From Romanomermis culicivorax (taxonomy: Eukaryota > Nematoda > Enoplea > Mermithida > Mermithidae), in the NCBI GenBank assembly GCA_963922205.1, contig CAWUHX010000272.1:186001-250000 (forward strand): a stretch of DNA of 64,000 nt. The letters run 5' to 3'. The notes beneath the pieces are model-generated. The model was not told where the DNA came from and made no database searches. It worked only from the letters and a program-made list of their open reading frames with translations. Below, piece by piece: positions 785 to 58,705 of the stretch. Numbering within the stretch: position 1 is the first letter of the stretch; each line of letters opens with the position of its first letter. The position numbers were made by a program, and so were the translations under genes.

Positions 785-1837
785 TAGAAATGGGACGAAT
801 CCAGTTTTATGTAGTTTCCGAATACGAATCCAAGAAATTGGTAAGTACCGAATCCGAATCTGACATTAGGGTTCGGGCGAATCCGAATCCTACATTAATA
901 TTTGGCTTGGCTAAAATGAAGAATCATGGACAGTATATGAATCATTCTTTCTAAAAAATTTTCTGATCCCGATAGTTTAGAACCCTGGATAATGGATCTT
1001 TTCAGGACGATTTCGTGATTTAAAATTTGATTTTTTCGGCCTAATGCTAAAAAATCAGCTTGAAGTCAACGATGTTTCATAGATTTGGGCGAAACAACAA
1101 AATTCGTAAATAGTTTTCGTAAACGCGAAGCGTCAAATTATTTTGCAGTTTTGATACTAGGACGCTGGAAATGAATATTTTCGATTTTCATTTCCTTGAA
1201 AAGTGCTGTAATTTTTTATTCAATTCAATCACTTTTCTTAGTCGCACAAAATGCAAAATATCATATTGAAAAAATGCCAATTAAATTTGTAAAATCGGAA
1301 GAGCAATCAAAAATTTAGATCATTCGACAGCACTATCTGTCACTTTCCCGAACTGATGGTGTTCCAATCATACGCCAAAAATAAAAAAAAAATATTTTTA
1401 CAAAGTGCAAAAATTTGTGAAGACCACAGAAAATGTTGTGAAAAAACTGAAATAATCTTCATTATCTCACATAAACTTACGCGCAACATGAAAGATAAAC
1501 TGATTAAACTATGAGGTGAGACATTCTGGGTGGTAACAACTATTGAATGCTTACTATTAAGTAGAATATACATGCTTGTGGTCGCCCTCGAGCTGGATTA
1601 TAGCAAGCAATGGTCAAAATAATCATGGAAAATTTTCAAGGTTTCGACCTTCTTAAATTCACTGGAACGCACCTTTCCGACATATTTCTCATACACTTGA
1701 CATTTTCCAATATATTCGGATTCGGTCTGAAATTTTGGGCGAGACTACCGAATCCGAGTCTGAAAATCAGTGAAGTCGAATCCGAATCCAGAAAAAAAGA
1801 CCGAATCCAGCCGAATCCGGGATTCATCCCATCCTTA
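785..1837. mobile_element. hAT-type non-autonomous element, TAGGGATGGG-end group, GAATCC motif
   Basis: The left end reads TAGAAATGGGACGAATCC and the complement of the right end reads TAAGGATGGGATGAATCC. Identical 8-bp flanks AATTGAAC lie at 777-784 and 1838-1845, which is the target duplication length of the hAT superfamily. Many CCGAATCC/GAATCC copies lie inside each end (about 797-890 and 1725-1825). No transposase frame is visible in the 1053 bp. The terminal bases relate it to the elements at 9842-14101 and 18436-20110, whose inner motifs differ. Confidence 0.85.
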
Positions 1838-1845
1838 AATTGAAC

Positions 1846-2330
1846 TGACACTGCCTGCATTAATATACCTAGTGTTTTCATCTGTGACTAGATTTATTCA
1901 CCACTCATTTATTTGTATTTATCCGTTTACATTTTGAATTGATAACTATCGCGAGAACAATCACAATTTACATTTTTTCATCCTAATACTACCGTATTAC
2001 TCGAACTGACTTGTTAACATGAACAATTATAACTAAAACGGTATCGGTGCCTGAAGTCAGAGAAAACTGGATCGGTCTCAGTTGCTGAAATGTGCTAGTC
2101 GACACACACATCAGAAATTAAATCACGCTATTCATACACGTAACGGGGCCCATACCTGGACAAACCCTATCGGTTCATATGGTACCAGCCCGCCCAAAAA
2201 TTTGGTTGGTTGCCAAATCTTTTCCGTGGTTGTCAAGCCAAACAGGGGTAGGGAAGGGAACCAGATTTGGAGTACATTTATCTTGTACAAAATAGGGAAT
2301 TTGAAAAAGTAAATTCTGGTGCGTTTTAGA
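1846..2330. other. Unassigned non-coding stretch
   Basis: No gene, element end or repeat recognised. The short open frames here have no family resemblance. Confidence 0.4.
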
Positions 2331-2359
2331 CGGTCAAAATCTCAGAATTTTCTAGTGCA

Positions 2360-2990
2360 TCGCATTAATTGATTCCCTGATTAACTGGTTGATTCTATGA
2401 TCGGTTGGTTGATTTCCCGATTAGTGGGTTGATTCCTTGATTGGATTGGGTGGTTGACTGATTTTCTGGTTAGTTTGTTCATTAATCCCTGATTTGTTGG
2501 TTGATTCCCGTACCGGTTGGTTGACTTCCTAATTGGTGTGTTGATTCCATGGTTGGATTTGGTGATTGGTTGATTTCATGGTTGGTTTGTTCATTGATTC
2601 CCTGTTTAGCTGGTTGATTTTCTGATTCAACCGTTGGTTGGTTGATTCCCTGGTTGATTGTTTCGCTAACTTCTTGATTGTTGGGCTGATTTTATGATGC
2701 AATGGTTGGTTGACTGATTGATTGCTTGCTTTCCTAGTTAGTGGTTGGTTGGTCGTTTCCCTGGTTAGTTGGTTGTTTACCATATTCTCCGTTTGGTTCA
2801 TTGGCTCACTGATTTGCTGGTTAATTTACTGGTTAGTTGGTTAATCGATGTTCTTGCTGGTTAGTCAGTTCCCTGATCTGCTGGTTGGTTGATTACCTGA
2901 TTGCTTGGTTGGTTGATGGATTGTTGCATAAAAAGTTGGTCGGCTTATTTCCTAGTTGGTTAATTATCTAGTTTTTAGTGGTTGAAGGTC
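2360..2990. repeat. GGTTGGTTGATT-type minisatellite
   Basis: About 630 bases are made of variants of GGTTGGTTGATTCCCTGATT, alternating TTGG, TTGATT and CCTGATT blocks with an irregular period of roughly 20 bases. The Asn/Gln/Thr-rich open frame on the minus strand (2529-2801) is a translation of the repeat and not a gene. Confidence 0.8.
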
Positions 2991-3129
2991 TATCTCGAAG
3001 TTCTTTATCCCGTTTTTGCTGTTAAAATCGATTCACACACAAAGTATGATCTGGTGCTGAGAATCAAGTCATCTGGTAACCGAAGTCCCCTCATCTGGTA
3101 CCGAGTTGCATCCAGTTGAACCTATTGTC

Positions 3130-3546
3130 CAGGTATGATGGGGCCCCAAGGTCTGGGGAGGTCAGACGACTTTTTCGGGGCGGGGGGTCAGTAATTCCCC
3201 AAAATTTGGGAGAGGGGTTTCTGGAGGGAAAAGTTTCGATTTTTTCACTGGAAAAATCCGAAAAAAGGGTTCAAAAAATGGTATTTTTTTGTCTAAAAAA
3301 CCGTAAAAATGTATCCATGGCGCGAAGCGCCGAGAAAACTGACGTTTTCGACCATTTTTTGTTCAAAAATTGATATTTTTCATCAAAAAACGGACATCTT
3401 TCAATATATTTCCGACCAAAAGTATGAGGGTCCCTATGAGTACCCCATAGGATTGGAAAATCCTTGGGGGGGGTCGCCCAATGGCTAGTTATTTGGACGA
3501 CGATTTCTGGGAGTTTCCTATAGCACTTCCTCCCCAAATTACATGC
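3130..3546. mobile_element. MITE-like repeat, ACATGTAA family (copy 1)
   Basis: A roughly 415-bp copy of a family also found at 10653, 13224, 35905, 37002, 40376, 42808 and 43210. Landmarks in order are GGGGCCCCAAGGTCTGGGG near the left end, a TCAGTAATTCCC block, the hairpin GGCGCGAAGCGCC (about 3320), a block ending TATGAGGGTCCCTATG, and the end CCCCAAATTACATGC. Better copies are bounded by CATACATGTAA and TTACATGTATG. No coding capacity. Confidence 0.75.
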
Positions 3547-9841: not shown

Positions 9842-10032
9842 TAGGGACAGGCCGGATTCACATGTTTCCTAACAGCGAATCCGGATCTTATATGATAGCA
9901 TATACATGTGAGTATGTTCATGAATGATTTTGTATTATGTTCAATTATTCTAAATTCTAAAATTAAGTTGTATGAATTTATATTTTTTCGGTGTCAATAA
10001 ATTATTGATGATATATATGCCCAGAGTATATA

Positions 10033-10200
10033 CAGGCTGGCCTGTAGACCAGGGGGATTAGGGGGGCCATGGCCCCCCTTCAAGTGTTGAAAAAAGGCAA
10101 AGGTTCGGTTCTCGGTTTTTTCAAGTCAAGTCAGCAGAAATGCCAATTTTACGGCAAATTGAGTGCAACAAAGTTTTTCGCTGACATTAATCATAACTGT
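10033..10200. mobile_element. GGCCTGTAG repeat (copy 2, reversed interior)
   Basis: GGCCTGTAGACCAGGGGGATT and GGGGGGCCATGGCCCCCC start the unit. The part CAAATTGAGTGCAACAAAG resembles the reversed ACTCAATTT block of the copies at 7853 and 32251. Boundaries are approximate. Confidence 0.45.
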
Positions 10201-10652
10201 GTTTTTAATTAATCTTTTTTGTAATCTAATCTTTTCAAAATGTTTGTTGAATTTTACTTTGCCAAATTTTAGGCCTATAGTAAACTTCTGCCAAATTTTT
10301 AGGGTAGGGTAAATCCATACCCTGTGCGCATGTATGAGTGGCTGCAGGTTTCTTGTGGTTGTCTCATAAACAGGTTGTTATTGATTTGTTTATAAGTTTA
10401 TTAGTTTGTTCGTTTATTAGACAAGCACATTATTGAGAAATCGATATTCACACAAAACAAGTTGTTATTGACAAATAACAACCTATTCATTAGACAACTC
10501 CATTATTGACAAATCGATATTGACACTGAACATTAAAAGTCTCAGTCAGTAAAAAATAATAAAAAAATAAACTGCACTTTTATAAAAGGAAAAAAATTTG
10601 CTACCCGACGATTTTGGGATTTATCCACGACCTGAAACTGGTACCATGTACA

Positions 10653-11064
10653 CATACATGTAACGGAGCCCCGAGGTCTGGGGGGTCGGACGACTTTTTT
10701 GGGGCTGGGGGTCAGTGATTCACAAAATTTTGGGGGGAGTCTCTCAAGGAAAAAAATCGATTTTTTCCACGAAAAAAGTTCGAAAAATAGTTCAAAAATT
10801 TGTAACTTTTTTCTAAAAAGACCGGAAAATGTATTCATAGCGCGAAGCGCCCAGAAAATTCACATTTTTGACCATTCTCTGTTCAAAAATTGACATTTTT
10901 CAGTTATTTTTCCGGCCAAAGGTATGGGGGTTCCTACGGCTACTATATGGCTAGCCATAGGATTGGAAAATTCTGGGGGGGGTGGTCGCCCAATAGCTAG
11001 CCATATGGTCGACGATTTCTGGGGCCAAGGGTTCCCATAGCACTTCCCCCCAATTACATGTATG
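10653..11064. mobile_element. MITE-like repeat, ACATGTAA family (copy 2, complete)
   Basis: Bounded by CATACATGTAACGGAGCC and CCCCCAATTACATGTATG, a short inverted repeat. The interior shows CCCGAGGTCTGGGGGG, the hairpin region GCGCGAAGCGCCC (about 10841), GGCCAAAGGTATGGGGGTTCC and GTCGACGATTTCTGGGG. The copy in reverse at 37002-37434 has the same order. Non-coding. Confidence 0.85.
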
Positions 11065-12029
11065 CATGCACATGTATTTTTCTTATATGATTTAAGAATT
11101 CATTTTCTATTTTAATACATAACCTATGATCGCTACTTAATATTATTGATCCCAGATACAAAGACAAATTTCTCGAAAAACCTGGAACAAGTATAGTTGA
11201 AACATTGAAAACCATAGTTAGCAATCTAAATTATCAAAGCCAGATCATAATTTCAAACAAAGCTATAAAAAGCAGAAAAAAACGAAGAATAAGCGCGAGG
11301 TTCATTTAATGACTTTAAATCCAGCACCAGTGATGATGAAGAAGATAGAATTGAATCAGAAAATATAAACATAGTTAACAAAGTTTTTTTTTTGTATTGT
11401 CTGTAAATATATACTATTAGTAGAATTGACAGGAAATCGAAATATATATGAAGATGAAAAGAATTTCACCACCTAAATTAAACTTCACGGGCGAACCTGT
11501 CTTTGATAGCCAGAAAACTGTCTGCACCGGCAACGATTATCCCCATCGACTAAACAATTATTCAGTGGTGATCAAATTTATGACCCATCTATGACTCAAA
11601 TTCAAATTTATGACCCCACCAGAAATAGTTTGAGGGGTGATATAAGGTATTTTTAGCACGGTGCTAATAAAACCAGAGCCGTCCTAATGGAATTTTTTTA
11701 TGTTAGCACGCATGCAAATGACTGAAACATAAAAATTTTTGAAAAATTTTCTAGAAGAAAGTTAGAAAGAAAATATCACCAAATGTGGTGAAAAAGGAAA
11801 AATCGTCGTTTTCCCCAATAACTTCGTCAATATCCTTATTCTCTTGATCAATTTTGCTTAGTGAACGACTGAGGCTCGAATCTGAATTAACGTCGGCTCT
11901 TCTAACCTCCTGGACGAGTGATTTGAAGACAGCTGTTTTGACATATGCTGAACCTTATGCAAATCAGTAATAGTGAGTAGCAAATATACGTTTTTAGAAA
12001 AATCAATCGTGAACCTCGTAACTGGACAT
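11065..12029. other. Unassigned interior of the 9842-14101 hAT
   Basis: AT-rich sequence with short broken frames. No transposase motif or element end recognised. Confidence 0.4.
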
Positions 12030-12962
12030 TAAAGCTCCAGACATTAGAGCGCGGACAATACAACGCAAGACATTAGAGCGCAAGATATTAGAGCGCAGGG
12101 ACATTAGAGTGCAGGACAATAGAGCGCAGGGACAATACAGCGCAGGAAAATAGAGCGCAGGGACGTTAGAGAGCAGGACAATAGAGCGCATGGACATTAG
12201 AGTGCATATGGAAAAACTGATTTTTTCGGGCCAACATTCCCTGATTTGCGATAAACGCAAATTTCTAATTGTTTTTGAACATGAAAAAAATGTTAAGCAT
12301 GCAGCTTTCTTTAAAAAACTGGCAAGAAACTGCGCGTGTCATTCTGAATGCGAGTTAGAAATCCAAGATGAATTCGAAAATAACAAAATGAAACAATTTT
12401 ATTCAAAGGTCAAACGACAAACATTTGCGATTTTTCGTGTCTTTCTCAACTTTTGTATGAATGATTTGCATATCCCATCTTTTAACTAACAATTCGAACA
12501 ATTATTGATTCCCCCGTTTATCTACTCATAAAGTGTTTTTTTAATTGATTAGAGGTAAATCCCATATGGGCGACTGCATAAAAAATGTAAAAAGAATATG
12601 GATAATGAGAGAGTCGACGAACAATGAGATATAAAAGGAATAAAAGAAAAACACTAGAAAATGAACACAAAGGGATAAATAAGTAAGATAAAGTAAGAAA
12701 AGTGAAATGAGAAAGAGAGAAAAGGGAAGAAAAGAGGAAAACTGGAAAAACACTCAATGGTGGAAAAATGATGGAACCTGAACTTCTCCAGAGTCAACAG
12801 AAAATGTGAACAAAGCATTTTTGAGCTGAAATGTAATTATTTTTCAAATTATTTCATTTTCGGCTTTTTTATTTTACTCTGATCTAGTGTTTCCGTGCTC
12901 TATTGTCTCTATGCACCACTGTCTACGCTCTTTTGTCTCTGCGCTCTAATGTCCTAATGTAA

Positions 12963-13151
12963 TGACAACGTTATGACATACAGAGTTGAGTTAAGCTACA
13001 CAGCTGCATCTTAACTTTCTCGATATATTTTGTGTGCATGAGTTAAGCTACGGCTGAGCTGCTGTTTAAAGGCGATAGTATAACATATACAGTTAAGCTA
13101 CAGCTTGAACTGCAGCTCAGCTGGAGCTTAAGTCTCTTTGATGGAACCGGC
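12963..13151. mobile_element. Small insertion with TTAAGCTACAGCT palindromes and a Harbinger-like right end
   Basis: It interrupts the reverse 15-mer array. It contains several GTTAAGCTAC and AGCTGCAGCT-like palindromes and ends GGAACCGGCCCCTG, whose complement CAGGGGCCGGTTCC resembles the terminus GGGGCCAGTTGCAATA of the Harbinger at 48717. The left terminus is not clear. Probably a deleted Harbinger-type MITE. Confidence 0.5.
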
Positions 13152-13223
13152 CCCTGCGCTCTATTGTCCGCTCTATTATCCTGTGCTCTATTGTTCCTGC
13201 GCTCTATTGTCCCGCACTCTACT

Positions 13224-13551
13224 GCATACAAGTAATGAGGCCCTGAGGTCTGGGGGGTCGAGCGACTTTATTGGGACCGGGGGTCACTGATTCCCGAAAT
13301 TTCAGGGCGAGAGGTCTCTGAAGGAAAAAAATTAATTTTTCCACTACAAAAGTCCTAAAGGTTAAAAAATAGTAATTTTTGTCTAAAACCATAAAAAATG
13401 TATTCATAGCACGGAGCGACCAAAAAAATGAACATTTTTGACCATTTTCTGTTCAAAGATTGACATTTTTCATCAAAAAATTGTCATTTTCAATATTTTT
13501 CCAACCAAAGTATGGGGGTTCCTATAGCACTGCCCCCCAACTACATGTATG
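13224..13551. mobile_element. MITE-like repeat, ACATGTAA family (copy 3)
   Basis: Starts GCATACAAGTAATGAGGCCC and ends CCCCAACTACATGTATG. It contains CTGAGGTCTGGGGGGTCG and AGCACGGAGCGACC, an eroded form of the hairpin. It is inserted into the reverse 15-mer array of 12030-13582 and is shorter than copy 2. Confidence 0.8.
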
Positions 13552-14448
13552 CTCTAATGTCTGCGCTCTAGTGCCTTGGTACCGTGAATCTATATTGAAG
13601 TTGAAGCGCAGTTCCAGATACAACGAAAACATGGTCTTAACAGAAAGCGAATTCAGCGATTAATAGAAGTATTACTGCCAAACTAGCTGTTGGATATTTA
13701 CTTGTCGGTCATCTAACCAAGCGCATAACGTGACAATGAGCTAATTCAATTAGAATCAAATGTCTTATTCCTTTCGAAAATACCAATATCAAGCATGATT
13801 TCATGAGTCGACAATGCAGTATAAGCAGTTAATAAGAAATGACAAACTCGTATACCTAAATTTGAGACGAGCTAAGTATCAACCGTGCTGACTTGTGCTA
13901 AAACACCTGGGGGATGCTGAAAGCTTGCTATTTGTCAAGTATAATTTAGCTAACCGTTGACTTGGAATTTTTGTGAAACTTAATACAAACTGGAATGAAC
14001 AAAGATCTGATTATGACTGAATCTTAATCTTTGACAGCAGCGGATCCGAATCCAAAAATTTAGATAGATATCCGCGGATCCGGATGCACGGCTCATCCCT
14101 ACTTAACATTCGTATGTCGCAAAATAAATTTTGCCCAAAATGTCGCCGTGCGAACAGGCCTTTAAGGAATGAGACAAGTATAATCAGGGAAGGTGTCATA
14201 GGCCCCAAAGATTTGAAAATGATGGCTTGGTCGTGCATGAACAAGTGGTCAAGAATGCCAGCTTTTTCGGCACTTCGCGCTACAACTTGTCAAAATTACT
14301 GACAAGCTAGATATTGTTTTCGATCTATTCCTAGAATTTTGAAACGAATGTTTCTTTGGAATGACGCGGTGGAACTTAGACAATTAACGAGTCCCGATAT
14401 TCCAAGTCTGTCAACTGTTAGGTTCCATCTCTATTCAGCGAAACACAC

Positions 14449-15602: not shown

Positions 15603-18600
15603 TTAGTTTTTCTTCTGCGCCGTGCCGACTTTGGCCTTTTTCGTTCCACGAACTTTCTTCATGCGGTTTTTACGTTCCTTGCGTTGTTTACGGCCCATCC
15701 TTTCTCGTTTGTAATACCCTTTCTAAATAAAAATTGCACAAATCAATTAGCAAATACGGGATTTATTGCCCTGATTAGAGGAGCCTGTCGCTATGTATGT
15801 ATTTAAGTTTGAATTCCATGAAAAAAATTTTTGAAACAGTATTTATGTACGATAGAAAGAATATTCAAACTTTCGAGACATACAGGGCGGTAAGTTTGTT
15901 GGCGGATTAAAGGCCGATTATAGTAATCATGTATTAAACGTCACTTATAATCCAGGATTAAATTTTTTCGTAACTTTGTCGGTCGATTAAACGTAGGTTA
16001 ATTTAATCCGGGATTAAAGCGATCCGCATGCTCGTCAGATGATTAAAGCTGGATTATCATAATCGGCGATTATAATAATCCGAGTTTTCAATCCTGCCTC
16101 ACCCCTGGTTTAAAAGGCCGATTATATATGTTTTTGCGATTGCAAAGTCAGTTTGGTAGTTGAAAAATAAATGTTGATTTTTTGGACGATCTAAACGAGG
16201 GTGAAGCTGAAAATCAAGAACAAATTCGTCATTTCCCTAGATAGATCGAATCCGATGGGAACATTCGAATGAGAAGTTCTGGTCGCGAACTATGTAAGGA
16301 CAGTGCAAGAGAGCTAATTTCATAAAAAAATTAATAAAAATAAAAAATAGACAAAAAAATTAATTTAAAAACGAAATTTTTTAGATAAAAATTCTATAAA
16401 AACTTTTTAATAAAAAATTGAAACCCTATAGTAAATGATTTCATTTAATTTTCTTCAAAATAATTCAATTTCTTCAGAATCAGAATTAGTGGTTTTCTAC
16501 AGACACGTAGATAAATTGATAATGGTTAATTGATGACAAAAGGCGATGTGCTGAAGGAAAAGCTGTGCACCTACACTATAGACAGTATATGTTGTACAGT
16601 TTTCGATCAGCAATTATACTTTTAATCCTGAATTATATGACTTTAATGGGCGATTACATAATCGTCCTTGAATCAGCTGACGAACTTATCGACTATTTCA
16701 ATCGCCGATTAAATTAAAAAGGGGATTAAACGTAATCCTGGATCATTTTAATGGACCAACAAACTTACCGCCCACACAGTTTATCTAACGATAGTACGAT
16801 GACCTGTTTCTGCTTGGCTTTTGATGAATCTTGTATGATAAGCTCAAACTCAATTTTAGTACACAACCGATAGCTTGTATCGACATTTTATAGTAAATAC
16901 TAGACTATCTAACTGGCATTCAGCTATTTATGGAAATGCTTCGTTTATAAATTACCTAAAGCGGCTTGGCAATAGAAAATTATGATTTTCTAAGGTGCAC
17001 TTGAATTCAGCTCTAAAAAGCTCATTTCCTGAATTAACCATACCCAAAACTTTTTTCGCACTATTTTAAAAAAAAGGGCGAGGGTGGGGAATCTGATAGG
17101 TGAAATTTTTGTTAAATTTCAGCATTCAACGCGTTTGAGGGAGCAGGTGGGGTTTCTCATAAGACAATCTATAGGGGGTGAGGAGGATATTACACCGCGT
17201 GAGGTCTGCAAAAACGTTTATCATCAAGAAAAAAGCCATAACTATAGAATCAGGGACCCGAAACAAAAGAGAACCAAAAAAATATTAAAAGTTCACAAAA
17301 CTTATGCCAAAATCAAACTTTTAATCTCCAAAATCTACACCAACATGATTGTTTTTCGTTTACTTGTTTCAGTAAATTTTCATAAGCCAAATCTCTAGTA
17401 GGGCCGAACTTTCCCACGCCTTGATTAACCATTTCCGTCTGCAAGAATTTCCTGAGCAACTTCAGAACTTCAGAATGCATTATTTAGCTTCACTCAATTA
17501 AAAAAAATATCGTGGGCTTAGTGCTAGGTACGCAAAGTAAGGAGTACGCTAAAAATAGAACCAGACTGGCCGATAACCACTAACCGCATATATGCTTAAC
17601 CGCTGCTGTAGAAAGTAGGGGTACCCGATTCTACAGTTATGCCAGAAAAATGGCTGAATAATCCTTCATCCTCCCACAAAAAAGTTACTGGTTAGCTGAC
17701 AATGGAGAAGACTGTCTGACTGGTGCGCGAAATTTCCGAGTGTCATACTCACAGCCAGTGTTTTTTTCTTGCACTGAGCAAAACTTTTTTCCGCTCGTGC
17801 AAAACTTTTTTCAGGTCTTTTGCACCGTGCAAAAAAATATTTAACAAATGTGGAAAAAAATTTGGCGTTTTCATATAGAAAAGATGCATTTTGGTGCATT
17901 TTTTAGGTCCAAATCTTATAACTTCATAACGGTTATAACTTTAATAATCATTATTATTTAATGTGAAGCTCTGGCACGTCTTTTGTCAACCTTCACTTAT
18001 CACTAATTTTTAATAGTTTTCGTCGTCTTAAACGTATTATTTCATGTCCAATTGGTGATCTTCAATATTATATCATTATATTTAATGAAGATCCCAATTT
18101 TTCCTTCATACATTTTTCGGGAAAGATCAACACATCAATTTGGTGCATTTTAGAACGTCATAATCTCATAATTTTCCGGCGCTTTGCGCCGGTTATAGCT
18201 TTAATAATCATAACTAACTATGTATTACATTAGCTCAGACGCGGCTTTCAGAATGTCTACCTTCACCTATCATTTAATCTATTATAGTTTTCATCATCCC
18301 AAACGTATTACTTCATGTTTTAAATGGTAATCTTCGATATTATCTTGATATTTAATGAAGATTCACAGTTTTTCCTCGAAACATTCTTTGAGAAAAATCA
18401 ATACGTCAAGCCTCTAAACTTTTTGAGGTGATTATTAGGGATGGGCCGGGTATCCGGATCCGGATCCGCGGATATCTGCCCAAATTTTAGGATCCGGATC
18501 CGCTAAACTAGATTTTTTGGATCCGGATCCGATCCGGATCCGCTGAACCAAGTTTTTTAAGATCCGGATCCGCTGCTGTCAATGATTAAGATCCGGTCAT

Positions 18601-21547
18601 AATCGGATCTTTATTCATTATTATTCACATAAAATTTAGCTGTATCAGAAAACACCAACAATTTTCCGGCGCTTCGCGCCCGATAAATAATTCTTTGCAA
18701 TACTATTTTTCAACAAATAGTGCTTCCTGGAGAAAAAATTTCCAAGTAAAGGAAAAAATGTTGGTGGTCTTCCTGTACGGAAAAAGCGAATTTCGGTCCA
18801 TTTGAGAATGTCAAAATCTACTCCAACTATTTTGCAACTTAAATTTTAAACATGAAGCCGCGTTTGAATTGAGAAGCATCATGGAACTAATTTTCAAAAA
18901 TTTCAGGTTTAACTGGAAGTATTTCAGATTTATGAAGGTTATGAGTATATTTTCTTAATTTGTAAGATGATTATGAAGGACGGGAACTCGAGTGCTATTA
19001 GGAAGAAACTTTGTGCGAAAATACATAAAAGATCATGGTTTTCTCAGTGTACAAAAAAAATTTCTTCATACAAAAACTTTTTGGCCGATCTTTGTACAGG
19101 TACAAAAAGGCTTGTACAAAAAAACACTGCAATGGTAGCAAAATTATACTTGAGAAACAGTAATTTTTCAACAGTACCACTCTTCAAACGATTTTTGATA
19201 GGATCATAAATTTGACCAGCACCACTCAATAGCTGTTCATAGGTGACACTTTTCGCTGGTGCTAATTTAAGTTTACTTTCTAGATGAAGAAATTGTCCAG
19301 AGACGTTTGAGATTTAAGTTCATGCTCTAATTTGGTTTTTGAGTTGCTAGGTCCATTTTTTGACTATCTTTAAAGAAGACACAAAAACTAATTCTTTAAC
19401 ATAACTTTACTTTACCAGTAGCAATTTGTTCCACAATTACTTCTATTTTCATTATCTTATTTTTATCTAGCCGCAAACTGCTTATACATTGCCATATGTT
19501 TCCTCTCCAAATGTTTTCTCTGACATCCAGTAGCACAACCTTTTCTGGATAACTGGATTCTGCATTTATTGCACTTTGCCTTTTCTTCATCATCTGGGGA
19601 CACTGTGGAGTAGTCCCACACTCTGCTAGTGAAAGAAGAGCTTGAATCCATAAGTTCTGAAAAAAGTTTCTATTTCTATTCATTTCTTTTCTGATGAAAC
19701 CAATATTAATCTAAACATGAATACAACTTAATGAATGAAAATCATCAATTAGTACATGTCAGACAACCCCATGGGGAGGGGTATGAGGGGGGTATTACCC
19801 CTACCTAAGGTCCTAAAAATTGATCGCTGGGTGCCTAATTTTGCAACAAAGTGAAGTGTTTAATAGACATTTAGCCACACTACCCCCGTAAATGTTCAAC
19901 TTTACCCCTACCTGAAAAATCTGACCTTGGGGGCCTCTGGTACATGTTAACTATTTCAATAAACAAACATTTCAATGATTAATAATCTATTAATCTATTG
20001 ACACCAATGAATATATTTTTTTGGATCCGAATCCGATCCGGATCCGCTGAACCAAATTTTCCAAGATCCGGATCCGCTGTCGCCAAAAAAGTCGATCCGG
20101 CCCATCCCTAGTGATTATTCCTTTCTTAACGTAAAATAAATTCAGGAGCTTCATGGAAGTAGTTTTCGGAAATTTCTACTCTTCCACTCATATCTTTTCG
20201 GCCAAGTTCATGAGAGTCAACGAATAAATCACTGGTTTTAAAATTTTTCAATTAATAAAGTTCTAAAAATTACGACTTTTGAACACAAAATTTGAACATA
20301 ATTCTTGAAATAAATGTTTGGAAAATTGATTTTGATGCGTCGCCGAATGTCAATAGACAAAAACTTTTTCCGGCACTTGGCGCCGGAAAGATTAACATCT
20401 TTTTTGGGCTTTCACTTGTCATCATAGAGGACTTAACCGTCGATTTATCATCTAATGCAAATTCATTATGACTTAACCGTCGATTTCTCATCTAATGCAA
20501 ATTCATTATGCGGTTTTCTCGAAAATTTGTTCCACAATGCTTGTAAATTAGACTTGAAACTCGAAAATTTCAGTTTTTGCTCAATTTTAATGTTTGTAGT
20601 TTTAAATTAAATTTGAAAATTACACTGATTTAGTTATTAGTCTTTGGCCATGAGTTATTTATACCTTTTTTTGCGATGTACTAATTGTACAAATGAAATA
20701 TTGGCTGCTGTTTGTACATGTGTAAATGGGTCATGTACAGAGAAAAACCCTGTTTACAGTACAAGAAATTTTTTGGGGTGCAAAACTTGTTTGGTGATTT
20801 TTTTGCACCGTGCAAAACAGCTCGTGCAAAAAAACACTGCTTACAGCTGAGTTGATATGAGAAAAATGACTTGATCGAGCTCACTTTTTCAATTAATGAC
20901 TTATGCTTCCAACAATTTCAGAAATTTACTGTTCTGTCAATTTGAGAAAATATGAAGGTTGATCTATATGCAGAATATGAAACACATGCTCATTGACTCA
21001 GTATCTGTAGCATGCGGCGGCAGAATATGATGAAAACAGTTGCTACACTTAGGCCAAAATATGCAAGTGATAAAGTACAGGGCTCTAAACGGATGAATAC
21101 TTTGCTCGTTTAAGAATCACAATTGACAGAAAAGACCGAATGTAAGTTGAAAGGGCATCAGAAAATAGATGCAAAAAAGTAGTGCTACTAAAAAGAGAGC
21201 ACTTACGCGTTGCTGTCTATATTTAGGCTCAAACTTTTTCAAATAATCCAAAGTATCGTAAATGAGAGCGAAACCAGTCGAGCGACCACCTCCGAAATGA
21301 CACCGAAATCCGAAAGCAGTTATGACATCGGGCGTTGACTTGTACATCTTCGCTAATCGTTCGCAAATCTCCGTTTTCGGTATGCTGGCTCTGTTCGGAT
21401 GCAAAATATCGACAACCTAAAAAGCCGTTTTGATTTTCAATCAACGGCTGGCAGTGTCAATTGATATACTCTCACCATCTGCTTCCGGCAAAGTAATCGA
21501 TTCGTCATTACTTTGCGGGTTCGAATAGTAACAACTCCGTCAGCCAT
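15603..21547 (-). CDS. RpS24: 40S ribosomal protein eS24 (RpS24), 3 exons, complete
   Basis: Exons are 21547-21476 (24 codons), 21416-21207 (70 codons) and 15722-15603 (39 codons plus TAA), giving 133 residues, the usual eS24 length. It is a structural protein of the small ribosomal subunit. Diagnostic segments are [67 protein letters not shown] and the basic tail [20 protein letters not shown]. All junctions are GT/AG in phase 0. Intron 1 is 59 bases; intron 2 is 5484 bases and stuffed with transposons, unusual for a highly expressed ribosomal gene. The ATG is fixed by homology. An AATAAA lies 75 bases past the stop. The frame is intact, with nothing to suggest a pseudogene. Confidence 0.97.
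15885..16773. mobile_element. TIR element with GATTA-rich palindromes
   Basis: The ends are perfect 18-bp inverted repeats, GGGCGGTAAGTTTGTTGG at 15885-15902 and its complement at 16756-16773. The flanking bases ACA on both sides are a possible 3-bp target duplication. Inside each end are repeated GGATTAAA/TTTAATCC blocks that can pair with each other. No open frame of note in 889 bp. Superfamily uncertain; a 3-bp duplication would fit PIF/Harbinger, but ACA is not its usual TWA target. Located in intron 2 of RpS24. Confidence 0.85.
16774..17747. other. Unassigned part of RpS24 intron 2
   Basis: No element ends recognised. A 104-codon plus-strand frame at 17084-17398 has no recognisable domain, starts just after an A-rich run and is not supported by anything else. 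Confidence 0.4.
19041..19132. mobile_element. Fragment of a CAGTGTTTTTTT element with GTACAA motif
   Basis: The right end GTACAAAAAAACACTG has the same terminal bases as the 17756-20839 element, but the repeated inner motif is TTGTACAA/GTACAAAAA rather than GTGCAA. No matching left end was found, so it is probably a solo end inside the GGATCC hAT. Confidence 0.6.
19463..19651 (-). pseudogene. hAT transposase N-terminus, BED zinc finger fragment
   Basis: The 62-residue frame contains [20 protein letters not shown] followed by [11 protein letters not shown] and KHLERKH. The Cys-x2-Cys and His-x4-His spacing with the upstream aromatic is a BED finger, the DNA-binding module at the start of many hAT transposases. 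The frame stops right after the finger. The dimerisation and catalytic parts are missing. It lies in the expected 5' part of the minus-oriented element. Confidence 0.85.
19757..19945. mobile_element. Short ~190-bp repeat, GGGGGTATTACCC family (copy 2)
   Basis: Near-full-length match to 3965-4155, bounded by GTACATGTCAGACAACC and GGCCTCTGGTACATG, an inverted terminal match. Nested in the hAT at 18436-20110, so it inserted later. Confidence 0.8.
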
Positions 21548-22380
21548 GATTTTTTCACAATTCCCTAATAACGTTGAAAGATTTTTACAATAGCTTAAAA
21601 TAGAAAAACACAAGAATTACAGAAAGGGCATAAAAACATAAAAATATAATGTCAAAAAATTTGAACAAATGTGATGTGAAGCGAACCAACTCTGAAAAAA
21701 ATCCTATACTAAATGTAGCAGAACACAATTAATAAAACAAGATCCATACCAGCACATGCTACACGAATGTATACATGGGCGAGAATATGTGATTTCACAG
21801 ACCGATTTTCCGAAATTACGAATTGAGTAATCCATACGCACGGAATACGAGAAGAGCCACTTGAATTTTTCGTGGTAACATGAAAAAGTTAGTGCAATAC
21901 TTGAAAAAAGTATATGGAGTTCCTCATGACCTATTAACAGCGTGTCCAGCAGTATTCAAAAATAAAATCTCTGACTTTCCCACATTTTGACAGCAAAACT
22001 CACATACTTTCCCTAGTTAATGTATCGAATATATGGCCCAAAAGACCCAAAACTACCTGGCTGTGTTGCTGATACCGGACCCGATATCCAAAAAATGTTG
22101 GACCCGAAACCGAAGAAATTTTTACAATTCTGATTCGGGTCTGATGTACAACTAGTGATTCAGCTGGAAACAAATCCCCATGCCAAAGAACGTGATGACA
22201 CATTAATTAACTATTGAAATATGGATAGTAACTTGTGAGACTAGATTTAAAATCTACCGCAACCAAGCTATATTTCACGGACAGTGCCGACTGTTATTTC
22301 TTTTACACGCCGTCTTTTTAATCTAGATCGCTAATAACGATATTAATCTGACAATAAAAAATGAATTTAGAGATGTCTGG
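21548..22380. other. Upstream region of RpS24, no gene seen
   Basis: It should hold the eS24 promoter and 5' UTR; I cannot place a TATA box or start site. A stretch at about 22070-22135 carries GGACCCGATATCC and ATTCGGGTCTGATG, like hAT subterminal repeats elsewhere, but no clean ends are seen. Confidence 0.4.
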
Positions 22381-26225: not shown

Positions 26226-26229
26226 CTGC

Positions 26230-28643: not shown

Positions 28644-28827
28644 CAACTCTATCGTTAATATGCGTTCCCTGCTCATGTAGAACACCAATTCTTCATCAGC
28701 TCATCTTGGCTAACCTAACCAGGATTTTCTCAATTTTTCCTCATTTTTTCAGGTTACCGACTCCAAAACCATCAAAAAGCTTAGGTATAATTCTCCTTAA
28801 ATGCATACAAAAGCATCCGTACCCACC

Positions 28828-28890: not shown

Positions 28891-28899
28891 TTAATTATA

Positions 28900-30644: not shown

Positions 30645-30706
30645 GTTATCTATGTACCTTCAGAGCGATTCGTTGCACCAGCGGCCAGTCAGCTCCATCT
30701 GTGAGC

Positions 30707-36500: not shown

Positions 36501-39500
36501 ATTGGCTTGCAAAAATTTGGAATGGCTTGTAAAATTTGAGGTCAACAAGCCACTTGGCTTGTGACTCGTAGGTCAAAAAAAAACCCTGATTTGATTTCAG
36601 CTGAATTATTATAGTTTATTTTTAATAAACTACTTCTAAATTCAAAAAAAACCAATACTGTTAAATTGTTGACAGGAAGGTTTTACTGTATGATTTTTCA
36701 TTCAGAAAATTGTTGAAGGCTAGTTGTATAAATCCACAAATTTTTAGCTCTATGTGAGTTATGGTTTGGCAAAAGCCAAAAAGTTCCATTTTTCTCATTC
36801 AGAACCATTTCTGGATAAATAGACTATATATATTATACGTCAGACCCGAATCAAAATTGTGATAATTTTTTCGGGTCCGGGTCCAAAATTTCGGAAATAT
36901 CGGGTCCAGGTCCAAAATTTTGAGAATATCGGGTCCGGGTCCAGCAAAACGGTCGGGTAATTTCGGGTCCGCGTACCCGATACATCTCTACTGTGTATGG
37001 ACATACATGTAATTGGGGAAGTGCCATGGAAACCCCTCCCCCTGAAAATGTATCTAGCCATTGCGCGACCGCCCCCCACGATTTTCCAATCCAATGGCTA
37101 GCCATATGGTAGCCCTAGGGACCCCATACTTTTGGTTGGAAAAATACTGAAAATTGTCAATTCTTTGATGAAAAATGTCAATTTTTGAACAAAAAATGGT
37201 AAAAAATGTGAATTTTCTTGGCGCTTCGCGCCACCGCCATGAATACATTTTTTCGGTCTTTTTAGAAAAAATTACTTTTTTTAACTATTTTTCGGACTTT
37301 TTTCGTTAAAAGTCAATCTTTTTCCCTCGAGAGACCCCTTCCCCCCAAAATTTTGAGAATTGCTGACCCCCGGCCCAAAAAAAAGTGGCCCGACCCCCCC
37401 CCCCCCCAGACCTCGGGGCTCCGTTACATGTATGCTTCCCCCCCCCCCAATTACATGTATGAACCCTCCTACCCAGAGGTCCCCAAGGTCGAAAATTTAG
37501 GTAGGGGTAAAATCTGAAATTTTAAGGGTAGTACTTGAAATATGCCGTGACCTTTTTTTCTTTTTTTTTCTTGCTCTCAGCTTTTTGCTAAGGAGGGGGG
37601 AGTTGTAGTTTCTCGAACTTACATAACTGATTAATACCTCTACTTTATGCTTTTTACAGTCAAAAAACATTTACCATTTCAACTCCATTTTCCAGCTCCC
37701 AATCCTGCAACTTCAATGCACTAATTATAGGTACAGAATAGTCACACTTTGAAGACTGTTGTGCCAACTGATTCCTGCACATTTCAAGAATCGGGCACAA
37801 CATACGTTTGGAAACATTGTTTCAACCAGCATCTTCAGCAGTAAAAGTGCTACCAATTGAAAGTCCTGATGCTGAATGTGACTAGTAATCCCATTAGACT
37901 ATGAACTACGAGTTTGAAACCAAGTACCACTTCTGATCCACGTCAACAGACCTCACGTGTCTCAACTCATAGCAGGAAAGTATGCCACAGCTTGGGTAAC
38001 CATACACGCACAGAAGACCCAACGCAGAAGCGGAGAAAAGGAAAGGAGAGCATGAAGAGGCAGAATTTTAAGAACATAATGTTTTTCTTCCCTAGGGGCG
38101 ATTTTTTGATTAATGACATATACATAAGTCATTATTTCATCTCCCAATTATATTTATAATGATTTCCTACAAGTAGTATATATTAATGTACTGATATCCT
38201 TTCCTAAAAATCGCTATATGGCACAGAAGTTGCATACTTTCCCATTATCATTTGCTCAGTAAATGTGTCAAAAAGAGCAGTGAGTAATTCCTCAGAATCA
38301 CACATTCTGCAATTTTTCTCGAGTTAGTATAACCTACTGGGGAGAGGATGAAGTCTACCAAATTTTTTGGTATAGTGAGCTGTTTTTATGGGGGTAGTAA
38401 ATGAATTTACAAATCTAAGACGGGGGTAATACCCCCCCCCCCCCCCCATGGGGTGCTCTGCTCCTACCTGAGACCTTGAACACCCCTCTGGACCCAAAAA
38501 AAATCGTCAAACACTCCCACTGAACTTTTTCCAAGACAGCTTTTTTGATAATTTTCTATGCATATTTTGTATGAAAAATTTGCTTAGGGAACTTTTTTTT
38601 GTTTTTTCGCTTTCCCATCCCCCCTCTCACCCGCGTCGGTAAAAAGTCCAGGATACCGCCCGTTAAAAATTCTTGCCGTGCATGTCTGTTGTTGACATTC
38701 CTCACTCCTTGGAAACATAGAATGTTTGTGTCACTTGGAGAATCAGTACTTCTCCGAAATTTGATTAAAAAAGTGGTTCGTGCATGGTCAAACGTTGATA
38801 ATCATGTGGAACTATTGGCAATCTGATGTTAAAATTAGCTTTATCTTGGACGTTTGCACTTGAGTACAGATATGTCGAATAAGACTGTAAAGTGAAAACA
38901 TTTGTTCAATGACATGAAAAATGATATTCATGAGTTGCCAGTTGAGGGTGATTATTATTGAAAAATAAATCCATGGAATTTTTTAATAGAAAGAGTTGAC
39001 AAATTGAATTCAGAATGCAGAAATGTATTGCAACCTGACCGATGCAGTGTGTTGCATGATGATTGGAGACATCCCGGCTGCCACATGTATATGCTAGAAT
39101 AAAGTGCAATATACCACCTTTTATAAAATATCGTACATCAGATAAACTACATTACATTGTTTAGAGTTTAAATTTATATGTTGGAAACAAGTTACAGCAA
39201 AACTGCTCAGAAATTTGCTTCGTTTCAGTTGTAACTAAAAAATGAGTTTTGATTTGAACACTGCTCGCCTTATTGATCGAGTTCAAGCTTCAGCATTTTA
39301 TCAAGTAAATTAGCTGGAGCAAGCCTTATTTCAACACATTGGGTTGCGAGGGAGCTTAGAAAATCGGCAAATTAGTTTTTCCGAAATTGGAAAAAAACCT
39401 GAAGAATTCAAATTGTTGACGTCCTGAAACATTGTCTCAAGAATCAAAAGCTATCATTGAACATTGGTTATCAAAGAGACACTTCTCGTGAATGGGCAAA

Positions 39501-42500
39501 GGAAATTCTATCAAGGAGGAAGAAAAAATTATCAGTTCATCACTTTATTCAAAAAATTGTGTGTCGTCCATTTACCGGTGTTTCAAACCCGCTCCAAACG
39601 AATTTGAATCGTGAAAATCGTTTGTTTTGGCCCATTTTCCGAAGGATTATGATCATCTGGATTTTCTAAACTTTGCATTCAGCGATGAATTTTTCATTTA
39701 CGGAATAAGAAAGCCCAATCACCGAAATGACTGCGTTTGGGCGCTAGAAGCGGGCGAAATCCATGATTCGCTGAGACTACGAGCAGTGGTCAAAAATCCG
39801 ATGTGCATTTGACTTTTTTGATGTTTACGCTGAAGAGAATAATGCGGGTAATCAATGAAGAATGCCAGTCTTGGAATGGTACTAATTTTCGGCAAACAAT
39901 TCTATTAAAACACGTGATTCCATTTTTGAATGATGAGGAAAATGTGGTCAGCATTGGTGCACCCACTTTTGTTCATGACCATGCGCAAGGATTTTTTCGG
40001 GTGGAAAATCACAAGCCAAATAGACCTAAATTTTTAGTAACCAGAAATCTGTAATTGAAGAAAATCAACGCACTCTTGAATGTAATCGAATTATATGGAT
40101 ATCCAATCAATTGATATGTGTTCAAAAAATAACTGTTCATAGTTTTATTTCTAATCAGTGTTTTTTGTGTAAGCCTCTTTATACTTGTACACAGAAGATC
40201 AGCCAAAAAATGGTTGTATGAAGAATTTTCTTTTTGTTCACAAAAAAAACATGATTTTTTGTGGATTTTTGCACAAACCTTCTACGTAGCATTCAAGTTG
40301 ATGTCTTTTATATGTAGCGCAAAAGTACAGGGTATTGAAAAATGTAGCTTCTGCACTTATCCCTTATGTTGTGTCCATACATTTAATGGACCCCCCGTGG
40401 TCTGGGGGTTCGGCGACTTTTTCGGCCGGGCACCGGATTCCCCAAAATTTTACGGTAGGGGTCTATCAACGGGAGAAATCGATTTTTTCGCCGGATCGCC
40501 ATTATAAATGTCCCAAAAATGATTGAAAGAATATTATTTTTTGTCTAAAAAACCTTGAAAAAGTATTCGTAGTGCGAAGCTTGACATATTTGACTTTTTT
40601 TATTAAATAATTGACATTTTTCATTAAAAAACCAATTTTTCAGTATTTTTCTGGCCAAAAATATGGGGTTCCTTATGACTATCATATGGCTAGGCATAGG
40701 ATTGACATGATGTTTAGCTAGCCATATGGTCGACTATTTATGGGAGGCGTTCCTATGACACTTCCCTTCTCCAATGACATGTATATGGTTGTGTCCTATC
40801 TTTTCGGCGCGTTGAGGCGAAAAAATATTCCGTTTCTGACATTCTAAAGGGTCATATCATTTATACTTGCGTTTTTCAACGGAACGCAACGAATCGCCAA
40901 TAGCTTGAAGCGTTCAGCCTAAAAATCTAACTTCGGTGGGAAAGGATAACTGCGATTTTGCGGCAAATGACCGACGGTAACTTCCAACCGAACCGAACGA
41001 AAATTTCCATTTCGTTCGGTTACGTTGTGACGATTGCATTCCGTTCCGTTGGAAAAGGCAAATATATGTAAATGACCCTTGAAAAGCTGGAAAATTAGTT
41101 TAAGGTATTCAGTTAACATAAGGTTCAAATTTTCTGTTCAAAAACATGTCTATATCATTTTACAAATTAGAATAATATACTCATACTTTCACAAGTTTGA
41201 GAAACTTCGAGTTAAACTTGAAATTTCTGGAAATCACTTCCATGATGCTTATGACTTCAAACTCGGCCTCATGTTTAAAATTATAGTTACGAAGAAGTTG
41301 AAAAACTAGATTTTGACTTGTGAAATTTATCTTTTTCCTGTCGAACGACCCACATTTTTTCTCGTTTTCGAAAATTTTTTTCCCAAAAAGTAGGATCTGT
41401 AGAAAAAGCAGTGAATGAACCAATTCGAAGATTTAGAAAATGAAATCCTACGCGAAGTGCCGATACATTTTTAGGTGTTTTTTGATTTTAGAGCCTGCAG
41501 AACACTTACTTTAAATCAAAAATTAAATGAGAATACCGATAATTCACTAACACGTAAAGATATATGATCGGTTTATTATTAAGTACTTTTAAACCGGAAA
41601 AGTGGCAAAAACTTGCACTGTCGCCAAAATCATTTGCACCAAGTTTGATTGATTTTTTCTCAAAAAAAATGTTGAAGGCTAGTTTGGTAAGCTCAGAAAT
41701 TTTCATTCATGTTTGGCATGTAGTTCAGCAGAAAATCGTAAAAATAAAAAATAGTATTTGCTTTCCATTGGTACTATTTACAAGCATTTCAAGAAAAACA
41801 GACTATAAATCAGAATTTTTAGGAGCCAAAACAGCTCCTAGACCTAAAGTTTTAGGAACCAAGGCCCAGGAAATGACTAAAAAATATACATTAAATCGAA
41901 TGTCGAAAAATCTGCTTCGAAAGCGAGGTCACAAATTTTGGAGAAATAGCATGTGGCGGGGCAACAGTCCAGATTTGAATCTCACTGAAAATTTTTGAGA
42001 AATTGTTAAAAATTGAGTGGAACGTTTGATGCATCTACAGGCTGGTAAAAAACGTCACTCGAGGGAAACGTTAAAAAGTTTGCATCTCATTTCAACTGAA
42101 TCAGAATACGACATTGAACTTTATCGAAACTTTTGTGTTCTATGTCAGAACGTATTCGACAGGTTAGGGAGACAAATTGCAGTGAAACATATTCAAACTC
42201 GCATTTTCTGTGGATTTTAAGGTAGATTTTCTTTTTGCTCCATAAATCGAGTCAGGTCCGATATGTCAACTTGAAAAATAGTTCATTGAACGCAGAATTG
42301 AATTCCCTACATGCAATGACAATTATTTATAGCTTATACCCGTATGCCTGCTGGCGTGTCTCCAATCATTTTGCAACACCGTGTGCAAATTGCAATTGTT
42401 AGTATATTTTCACAATATAAAATACAAAATACGGAAGTGAAAACTGGTAAATCACCCACCCCCCGAAAAAATGACGATTTTAAAGGTTTCAGGTAACCGG

Positions 42501-57440: not shown

Positions 57441-57454
57441 CAGTATAGTTTTTT

Positions 57455-57880
57455 AGCATTTTACAAGCCATGGCTTGTTGGACTGACGAAATGGCTTGTA
57501 GAATTTGAGTCCAACAAGCCAAAATGGCTTGTCGTTTTTTGCTTTTTTACAGTGTAAAAATAGTCATTTTTCAATTATTTTTATTCAAAAACGGCAAAAG
57601 CGGGTGCTATCCAAATGGTCGATAAGTTGTTGCATTAAGTAATCTCTTGTTATATTTCCGTTTTTAAATGTTACTGAATAAATGTTGAATGACATCACTT
57701 TTTTTACGGATTGCCGTGATGCTCAATATACATTTCTTTAAAAAATAACCAAGCATTGGAATTTATTCAGGTATACTGATATTATAAAATTGGTTTGAAA
57801 AATTTGGAATGGCTTGTAAAATTTTAGGTCAACAAGCCACTTGGCTTGTGACTCGTAGGTCAAAAAAAACCCTGGTTAGC
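57455..57880. mobile_element. hAT-type element pieces with ACAAGCC motif
   Basis: GGCTTGTTGG/CCAACAAGCC blocks at 57470-57535 and ATGGCTTGTAAAATTTTAGG through AAAAAAAACCCTGG at 57810-57880. The segment 57665-57880 matches 36376-36598 nearly base for base. Left terminus not fixed. Confidence 0.75.
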
Positions 57881-58136
57881 GGTTGAAACTTCTCAGTTAG
57901 GTGTAAAATTTTTTACGAACAGTGTAAAATTTGCCTGTTTTCAAATCATTTTCACGAATCTGAAGTTAAACGTACTGTTTCTACCGAGTAAAATAGCAAA
58001 GACATTCGCGCTATTTTACACAGTAGGAGAATAGTTTTTTGTATAATTTGATGCATGCTCCTCTAAAAATAACGTCGTAAATATTAGGTTTCCAATTGTT
58101 ATTGACACGTGGCTAGAATTTTACTTGTTGAACGAC

Positions 58137-58224
58137 ACAACTGAATACCACGGAGCAACAAGGTGTTATGTGACCATAAGTGCAATGTCACATAGCACCT
58201 TGTTGCTCCAACGTATTCAATTGT
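58137..58224. ncRNA. 38-bp-stem hairpin, pre-miRNA-like or small MITE
   Basis: ACAACTGAATACCACGGAGC onward (58137-58174) pairs with 58187-58224 over 38 bases with about five mismatches and a 12-base loop CATAAGTGCAAT. The length and bulge pattern fit a microRNA precursor but also a short palindromic transposon. Expression is unknown. Confidence 0.35.
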
Positions 58225-58599
58225 TTAAAGATGTTTGCGTTTTGGGCTCTTGCTTCATTTCTACTTTCTTTTTCGTTTTTGAGCTATGATTTTGAACACC
58301 TTCGACTAAAAATACTTACAGGCTTTATAATATGCTTTTTCTACAGACTTTATTTTTTCATAACGGCTAATCTTTTAATTCCTTCTCTGCGTGTTTTGTT
58401 TTTCAGGGTTTTTGCATAAAACTTCTGTAGTAGTGATGAATATTCTTTTTCTTAATGAAATTTGGAAAGCAAAAAGATGTTTGCAAAGAACAATCTACGT
58501 TGACAGAAACGACTGTGACGACAGTTTTGCCAAAACAGGCTATAGTTCAAACATAATATGAATAAATAACATAAATATAAATCATAAATATAAAAATAT

Positions 58600-58705
58600 A
58601 GAACCGGATCGTCATTGCGATGTTCTAGAACCGAATTTGGATCAAGCAAATTTTCTGGATCCGGATCTGCATAGTCAAAAATAGTGGACCCGTCTCATCT
58701 CTATG
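58600..58705. repeat. hAT subterminal block, GGATCC/GGACCC, end CATCTCTA
   Basis: ATTTTCTGGATCCGGATCTG and GTGGACCCGTCTCATCTCTA form a right end of the TAGNGATG group. The left partner was not found. Confidence 0.6.

What the first reader, a model, noticed from the sequence alone, without database searches (positions are those of the whole stretch)
785..58705. Related transposons keep their tips but swap the short palindromes just inside them
Three hAT-type tip groups each occur with several different inner motifs. TAGGGATGGG tips: GAATCC (785-1837), mixed GAATCC/GGATCC (9842-14101), GGATCC (18436-20110), GGACCC (36840-36995, 58680). CAGNGTTTTTTT tips: TTGCACGGTGCAA (17756-20839), TTGTACAA (19041-19132), GTGCCAATTGGCAC (27835-28643), ACAAGCC (36505-36598, 57470-57880). 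GGGTTGGCAA tips: TTGGTTTTT (26230, 29648) and GGGTTTTT (30021-31525). The motif is iterated many times at both ends of one element. Interiors can remain homologous while the motif differs: 20320-20630 and 36131-36370 align although one element uses GTGCAA and the other ACAAGCC. I infer that subterminal transposase-binding sites turn over as a set, perhaps escaping repression or cross-mobilisation.
Basis: partly seen in the sequence, partly recalled or inferred. Interest (0 to 1): 0.85.

Follow-up and report, generated by a model that had tools for sequence, protein, structure and literature searches.

The report
Transposons with swapped inner motif arrays
Several families of an ordinary kind of jumping DNA in one animal genome share the same tips but carry different repeated short motifs just inside them, and in some pairs every copy of the motif differs by the same letter at the same position, which looks like a recognition code being changed as a set.

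Summary
The observation largely holds. Animal DNA (eS24 gene). Six hAT elements have 8-bp target duplications (five 8/8, one 7/8): 785-1837, 9842-14101, 18436-20110, 17756-20839, 27835-28643, 30021-31525; the other ends are single. Motif arrays are nearly exclusive to a class, and the two ends of one element match best (best of 720 pairings). New support: some classes keep the site layout and change one letter at every site (A1L/A3R, 5 of 5; B1R/B2R, 4 of 4). In 5 of 8 elements the two arrays match best, beyond shuffles, in direct orientation although tips are inverted, suggesting copying between ends. ACAAGCC ends share only a T-rich tip with other B ends. A GGATCC element carries a decayed BED-finger remnant, so BED-read sites are plausible but unshown. 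Motif-BED covariation was untestable: one BED finger found, no genome held. The general concept (family-specific subterminal motifs; motif arrays diverging together) is published for hATs and VANDAL elements.

The parts
785..1837 (.). A1: complete hAT element, TSD AATTGAAC 8/8, GAATCC arrays at both ends (10 on +, 2 on -; no GGATCC)
9842..14101 (.). A2: complete hAT element, TSD CTTAACAT 8/8, sparse mixed GAATCC/GGATCC sites; no Pfam match at E 0.05 in six frames
18436..20110 (-). A3: complete hAT element nested in B1, TSD GTGATTAT 8/8, GGATCC arrays (8 left, 3 right in 150 bp); decayed transposase pieces on the minus strand
19496..19627 (-). BED zinc finger remnant in A3 (Pfam zf-BED, E 4.6e-8, above cut-off)
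19143..19259 (-). possible C-terminal hAT dimerisation remnant in A3 (E 0.0039, below Pfam cut-off)
18513..18575 (+). A3 left array block, 94% identical in direct orientation to 20017-20079
20017..20079 (+). A3 right array block, direct-orientation match of 18513-18575
36843..36990 (.). A4R: single end with 6 GGACCC sites; left boundary uncertain
22077..22151 (.). fragment matching the A4 GGACCC array (81%)
58596..58703 (.). A5R: single degenerate end, mixed sites, three to four in the register of A3R; left boundary uncertain
17756..20839 (.). B1: complete hAT element, TSD CTCACAGC/CTTACAGC 7/8, TTGCAC/GTGCAA arrays at both ends
20670..20752 (.). B7R: second tip (CAGGGTTTTT, TGTACA sites) just inside the right array of B1; no partner found
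18706..19129 (.). B2R: TTGTAC-type end inside A3, remnant of a longer element related to 40125-40312 and 41154-41407
40156..40312 (+). B8L: degenerate end related to B2R
27835..28643 (.). B3: complete hAT element, TSD CAACTCTA 8/8, GTGCC/GGCAC arrays at both ends
29456..29559 (+). B4L: single GTGCC-type end, 81% identical to the right end of B3
36376..36588 (.). B5R: ACAAGCC-type end, 92% identical to B6R
57442..57874 (.). B6: ACAAGCC arrays on both sides, no TSD found; left boundary assumed
35300..36375 (.). E: probable separate insertion (TSD AAATGTTA 8/8, TIR 8/12) that contains the segment cited as shared interior
26229..27300 (.). C1: TTGGTTTTT-type element with a left tip only; motif-like sequence also near the right side; right boundary uncertain
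29651..29985 (+). C2L: TTGGTTTTT-type end; 29694-29985 is 91% identical to 27007-27293 (inverted)
30021..31525 (-). C3: complete hAT element, TSD TGCATGCA 8/8, GGGTTTTT arrays in inverted orientation
30465..30617 (-). hAT C-terminal dimerisation domain remnant in C3 (E 9.5e-6, above cut-off)

Best explanation
These are decayed and non-autonomous hAT DNA transposons of an animal genome (shown). Each class carries, just inside its ends, an array of one short motif (shown; at both ends in five of the six complete elements) that is most likely read by the N-terminal BED finger of its transposase, while the conserved tips are read by the catalytic core (inferred from published hATs). Within a tip group some classes descend from one end whose site layout was kept while one motif letter changed in every site (supported for GGATCC/GAATCC and TTGCAC/TTGTAC; weaker for GGACCC, GTGCC and TTGG/GGG; not supported for ACAAGCC). 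Arrays are kept uniform because blocks are copied between the two ends in direct orientation (supported by sequence; the copying mechanism is inferred). A change of BED specificity plus spread of the matching array would then separate sister families (inferred, untested).
For: TSD/TIR scan above background. Motif exclusivity. The true left-right pairing of the six complete elements scores best of 720 permutations with a 6-mer measure that names no motif. A1L against A3R, ungapped from the tip: sites start at 13, 36, 42, 66 and 72 in both; 2nd letter G in 5 of 5 against A in 5 of 5; other motif columns 21 of 25 identical, spacers 17 of 37. Random placement of three site clusters gave that register 8 times in 200000. 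B1R against B2R: 4 of 4 sites switched (C to T read on the TTGCAC strand), other motif letters 19 of 20, spacers 17 of 27. Tip-anchored alignment: 12 of 66 different-class pairs above z 3 (7 of these 12 between unmixed classes) and 6 above z 4; control pairs from different tip groups 3 of 152 above z 3 and 0 above z 4. Direct-orientation match above all 300 shuffles and above the inverted match in A1, A3, B1, B3, B6, 5 of 8. BED and dimerisation remnants. Published: hAT BED proteins bind motifs that match their own subterminal regions, 4 of 4 hAT proteins (PMC8097297); the Hermes BED domain reads subterminal repeats whose phasing the authors call crucial (PMC10368747 passages).
Against: Only one BED finger was found, so motif-BED covariation is untested. 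Spacers between classes are only 46% and 63% alike, so descent of the arrays rests mainly on register. A1L against A3R has 38 of 67 identities at shift 0 but 33 at the best other shift. ACAAGCC ends do not align with other B classes. A2R against A4R, ungapped, is barely above other shifts (29 against 25 of 54). C1L against C3L is T-rich (42 of 58 at shift 0, 35 at the best other). The inverted left-right match also beats all 300 shuffles in A1, A3, B1 and B3 (as repeated motifs would give), and the direct score is only a little higher in B1 (45 against 37) and B3 (46 against 41); C3 is inverted; A2 and C1 show no clear match. A2, A5 and B8 are mixed or sparse, and A3R holds one GAATCC. In Hermes, a section is headed that binding of auxiliary transposases inside the ends is unlikely to support transposition in cells, and some maize Ds1 move without the Ac hexamers while Ds-l elements with them did not excise, so not every array copy need be a transposase site. 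Sample: one 64-kb window.
Confidence: 0.55

Rival explanations
1. The classes are separate old hAT families that each evolved their own array; short tips look alike because the catalytic core constrains them, so nothing was swapped.
For: The self-comparison at E 1e-8 shows little interior similarity between classes. ACAAGCC ends show no scaffold similarity to other B classes. The B tip is largely a T run. Herves authors state that the bound regions differ in sequence between hATs (PMC3143072 passages).
Against: A1L/A3R and B1R/B2R share site register and change one letter at every site; control pairs from different tip groups do not reach z 4.
Confidence: 0.27
2. The one-letter differences are mutational decay (deamination) of one ancestral array rather than a functional change.
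For: The A-group and B1/B2 motif differences are all transitions. A2, A5 and one site in A3R show mixed sites.
Against: A1 holds 12 GAATCC hexamers and no GGATCC, and 5 of 5 register sites of A1L carry the same letter. The changed bases are not in CpG (read from the sequence). Other motif letters are kept in 21 of 25 and 19 of 20 columns, better than spacers. C1/C3 differ by T to G.
Confidence: 0.08
3. The arrays serve another protein, such as an element-encoded anti-silencing factor or a host factor, and turn over in that arms race, as in VANDAL elements.
For: VANC target motifs form tandem arrays that vary between related elements (PMC5735166 passages).
Against: Sites lie within about 80-150 bp of the tips and, in some classes, at fixed distances, which fits a transpososome better. 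No second element-encoded protein was recognised, but the elements are decayed.
Confidence: 0.1

Closest known systems
hAT transposons with subterminal repeats: Ac/Ds (AAACGG), Hermes, Herves (CG/AATTCAT)
   Same: 8-bp TSD, short CAG/TAG tips, repeated short motifs just inside the ends, BED-type DNA-binding domain, non-autonomous derivatives
   Different: Here several tip-sharing classes in one window carry different motifs, some with the same register and one letter changed throughout. The passages I read did not describe that.
hAT-derived CGG-binding proteins (Yellan et al. 2021, PMC8097297)
   Same: Diverse BED specificities; motifs of all four hAT proteins that gave data match subterminal regions of their own Repbase models
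   Different: That study measured proteins across species; here only DNA ends in one genome are seen and no binding was measured.
VANC/VANDAL motif arrays in Arabidopsis (Hosaka et al. 2017, PMC5735166)
   Same: Short-motif arrays that diverge together between related transposons

Membership tests
hAT superfamily | 8-bp target site duplication | tested here: met
   8/8 in A1, A2, A3, B3, C3 and 7/8 in B1; no convincing partner for the ten single ends
hAT superfamily | short terminal inverted repeats starting CAG or TAG | tested here: met
   9-12 of 12 in A2, A3, B1, B3, C3; the right tip of A1 starts TAA
hAT superfamily | transposase with N-terminal BED finger | tested here: met
   A3 only, 19496-19627, E 4.6e-8; none in A2 or 26201-31200; the remnant is decayed
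hAT superfamily | C-terminal hAT dimerisation region | tested here: met
   C3, E 9.5e-6, above cut-off; A3 E 0.0039, below cut-off; no other match in 26201-31200
hAT superfamily | RNase H-like catalytic domain | tested here: inconclusive
   no hAT catalytic family among those listed at E 0.01 in the six-frame Pfam scans; elements are deleted or decayed
Ac/Ds group | AAACGG subterminal hexamers | not tested
   AAACGG was not counted; likeness of the TAGGGATG tip to Ac is recalled
VANC/VANDAL-like system | element-encoded anti-silencing protein that binds the arrays | not testable with these tools
   no intact element recognised in the window and no genome held

The most novel reading that the evidence does not exclude
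Sister hAT families arise by a switch of BED-finger recognition in which one letter changes in every subterminal site at fixed register, made possible by copying whole array blocks from one end to the other in direct orientation, so that motif and finger co-evolve as lock and key while the tips stay the same.
Probability: 0.35. Interest if true: 0.72.

Novelty: new variant of a known kind. Interest (0 to 1): 0.5.

Why it matters
If sister families differ by one letter in every site while keeping register, the pairs are natural experiments on how BED fingers read DNA and on how new transposon families become isolated from old transposases and their defective copies. The prediction (which finger residue changes with which base) is directly testable in any genome with young autonomous copies.

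Tried and rejected
Whole-genome copy collection was not possible. Related loci: a tip-plus-motif pattern for the TAGGGATGGG group gave 0 matches in viral contigs and a wider one 0 in genome contigs; patterns for the other two tip groups were not searched. The BED peptide (15 pattern stretches, viral) and the C-terminal peptide (382 in genome contigs, 39 in viral) gave no confirmed relative. The BED region had only one solved-structure match, at E 0.34. The interior homology 20321-20592/36112-36361 was considered as proof of motif swap and rejected: 36376 is both the start of the B5/B6 homology and the base after an 8/8-TSD pair, and a partner that good by chance appeared in 1 of 3000 simulations. 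Against that rejection, the left flank of E shows no B6-like sequence, so the history of that locus stays unresolved. Strand-biased hypermutation in A1 was looked at by base and triplet counts only and showed nothing clear. CpG decay was rejected because the changed bases are not in CpG.
Full report
Origin. No whole genome is held for this window. A ribosomal protein S24 gene, split by introns, lies on the minus strand (matches at 21535-21473, 21416-21207, 15719-15612). The joined exons score up to 189 bits against solved ribosomes, with 169 bits for 9bh5 and about 150 for the next block. That the top block is animal, 9bh5 a nematode and the next block plant is recalled, because the table names no organisms. 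On that basis I call the window animal DNA; the species is not identified.

Elements. A scan that assumes only [C/T]AG tips, 8/8 TSD and TIR of at least 8/12 finds 7 pairs, against a mean of 0.2 and a maximum of 1 in 20 simulated sequences. Two form a fourth tip group (CAGAGGNCCCCAAGG; 19760-19939 and 37474-38460), and one is 35300-36375. With one TSD mismatch allowed and TIR of at least 9, 8 pairs are found (background 0.7); 17756-20839 is among them. 785-1837 has a perfect TSD but a right tip that starts TAA. Ten other ends (19129, 20752, 29456, 36588, 57874, 36990, 58703, 26229, 29651, 40156) have no convincing TSD partner within 8 kb. I label ends by group and side; A3R, for example, is the right end at 20110.

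Arrays. Counting ten motifs in the inner 150 bp (90 bp for one short element) of 26 ends gives a nearly diagonal table with the exceptions listed in the observation check. [quoted passage not shown] Top shared 6-mers are CGAATC and GAATCC (A1), CGGATC (A3), GTGCAA (B1), GGCACA (B3) and GGGTTT (C3). A2 is weak (cosine 0.22), and its right end resembles A3L (0.51).

Swap in register. Read inward from the tip, A1L and A3R align without gaps and their sites start at 13, 36, 42, 66 and 72 in both. The sites are GGATC/GAATC cores; not all are perfect hexamers. The second letter is G in 5 of 5 sites of A3R and A in 5 of 5 of A1L. The other motif columns agree in 21 of 25, spacers in 17 of 37 and the first ten bases in 8 of 10. 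Random placement of three site clusters gave that register 8 times in 200000. Overall identity at shift 0 is 38 of 67 with 33 at the best other shift, so the case rests on the sites. A2L keeps the first three sites; A5R keeps register with degenerate letters. B1R and B2R align over 65 columns: 4 of 4 sites switch TTGCAC to TTGTAC (or the reverse complement), other motif letters agree in 19 of 20 and spacers in 17 of 27. An inner TTGTAC occurs in B1R at about the same place as in B2R, but it lies at the junction with the B7 tip, so I do not build on it. C1L and C3L agree at 42 of 58 ungapped positions, against 35 at the best other shift, in T-rich sequence. A2R and A4R share three site positions, but overall identity (29 of 54) is close to other shifts (25).

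Wider test. Tip-anchored alignment of nucleotides 14-110 for all 79 within-group pairs was compared with 200 shuffles each. Of 66 pairs from different motif classes (A2 and A5 counted as classes of their own), 12 exceed z 3, of which 7 are between unmixed classes, and 6 exceed z 4. Of 152 control pairs from different tip groups, 3 exceed z 3 and none z 4 (100 shuffles each). No ACAAGCC end exceeds z 3 against another B class, so that class shares only the tip. In the same test the two ends of one element, both read inward, exceed z 3 only for B3; left and right ends have different layouts.

Direct copies. The 63-bp array block of A3 at 18513-18575 recurs at 20017-20079 at 94% in direct orientation, although the tips are inverted. 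Among 8 elements tested (boundaries of B6 and C1 assumed), the direct match beats all 300 shuffles and the inverted match in A1 (39 against 27), A3 (106 against 39), B1 (45 against 37), B3 (46 against 41) and B6 (49 against 29). The inverted match also beats all 300 shuffles in A1, A3, B1 and B3, as repeated and palindromic motifs would give, so A3, B6 and A1 carry the argument. C3 is inverted (50 against 25); A2 and C1 show no clear match. I read the direct matches as blocks copied between ends. That would homogenise an array and let a new letter spread through it. In A1, 10 of 12 sites read GAATCC on the plus strand, at both ends, and 2 read GGATTC, as direct copying would give.

Why not decay. 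A1 holds 12 GAATCC-type hexamers and no GGATCC. The changed bases are not in CpG (read from the sequence). The remaining motif letters are kept better than spacers.

The interior argument. 20321-20592 and 36112-36361 are 72% identical. However, B5R matches B6R only from 36376 (92%), and 36375 is the right edge of the pair 35300-36375 with TSD AAATGTTA. A partner this good by chance was found in 1 of 3000 simulations. Joining the flanks gives homology to B6 on the right side only; the left side is probably intron of a host gene (inferred). So the segment probably belongs to a separate insertion, and its neighbour B5R was already truncated or later rearranged. On the other side, 20321-20592 is separated from the B1 end by another tip at 20752. 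This pair does not show one interior with two motifs.

Proteins. Scans with stops as X show a BED finger in A3 (19496-19627, E 4.6e-8) and a weak hAT dimerisation piece (19143-19259, E 0.0039, below cut-off) on the minus strand, and a hAT dimerisation domain in C3 (30465-30617, E 9.5e-6). A2 gave nothing at E 0.05. The whole-window scans list zf-BED for one member only.

Literature. Seven searches. Read: PMC8097297, parts 1 and 2 of 3; passages only of PMC10368747, PMC5735166, PMC3260210 and PMC3143072; other hits were seen in the listings only. From these: hAT transposases bind family-specific subterminal motifs; BED specificities are diverse; the Hermes authors call the phasing of left-end sites crucial, though they find binding of auxiliary transposases further inside unlikely to matter; VANC target arrays in VANDAL elements diverge together. 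In those searches and passages I did not find a description of tip-sharing hAT families with register-preserving one-letter swaps; most listed papers were not read and many papers are not in the library.

Verdict. The motive (escape from repression or cross-mobilisation) is a guess.

Noticed in passing
15612-21535: Ribosomal protein S24 gene (minus strand) whose roughly 5.5-kb intron holds the nested hAT elements B1 and A3.
   Followed up: partly
19760-19939; 37474-38460; 3986-4151: Fourth hAT-like tip group (CAGAGGNCCCCAAGG / CAGAGCACCCCATGGGG) with 8/8 TSDs in the first two; 3986-4151 is 89% identical to 19777-19942. No shared motif array stood out.
   Followed up: partly
3138-3548; 10653-11072; 13224-13525; 35905-36132; 36992-37434; 40376-40784: A roughly 420-bp repeat family in several full or partial copies, 67-88% alike, sometimes in inverted pairs.
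   Followed up: no
20670-20752: A second hAT-type tip with TGTACA sites sits just inside the right array of B1; no partner end was found.
   Followed up: partly
47941-48090; 57011-57160: The only windows away from the listed ends with 3 copies of a motif (TTGTAC and GGATCC); possibly further decayed ends.
   Followed up: partly
61216-61947: Long imperfect palindrome, 74% over 749 aligned columns.
   Followed up: no
49111-49287: Myb/SANT-like domain on the plus strand; DDE_Tnp_4 matches (2 of 12 members, place not resolved) in 48-64 kb suggest a Harbinger-type element (inferred).
   Followed up: no
33915-34073: Weak zf-C3HC (NIPA-like) match, just below the Pfam cut-off, on the plus strand.
   Followed up: no
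2368-2619: Tandem array with a 112-bp unit, 2.2 copies.
   Followed up: no
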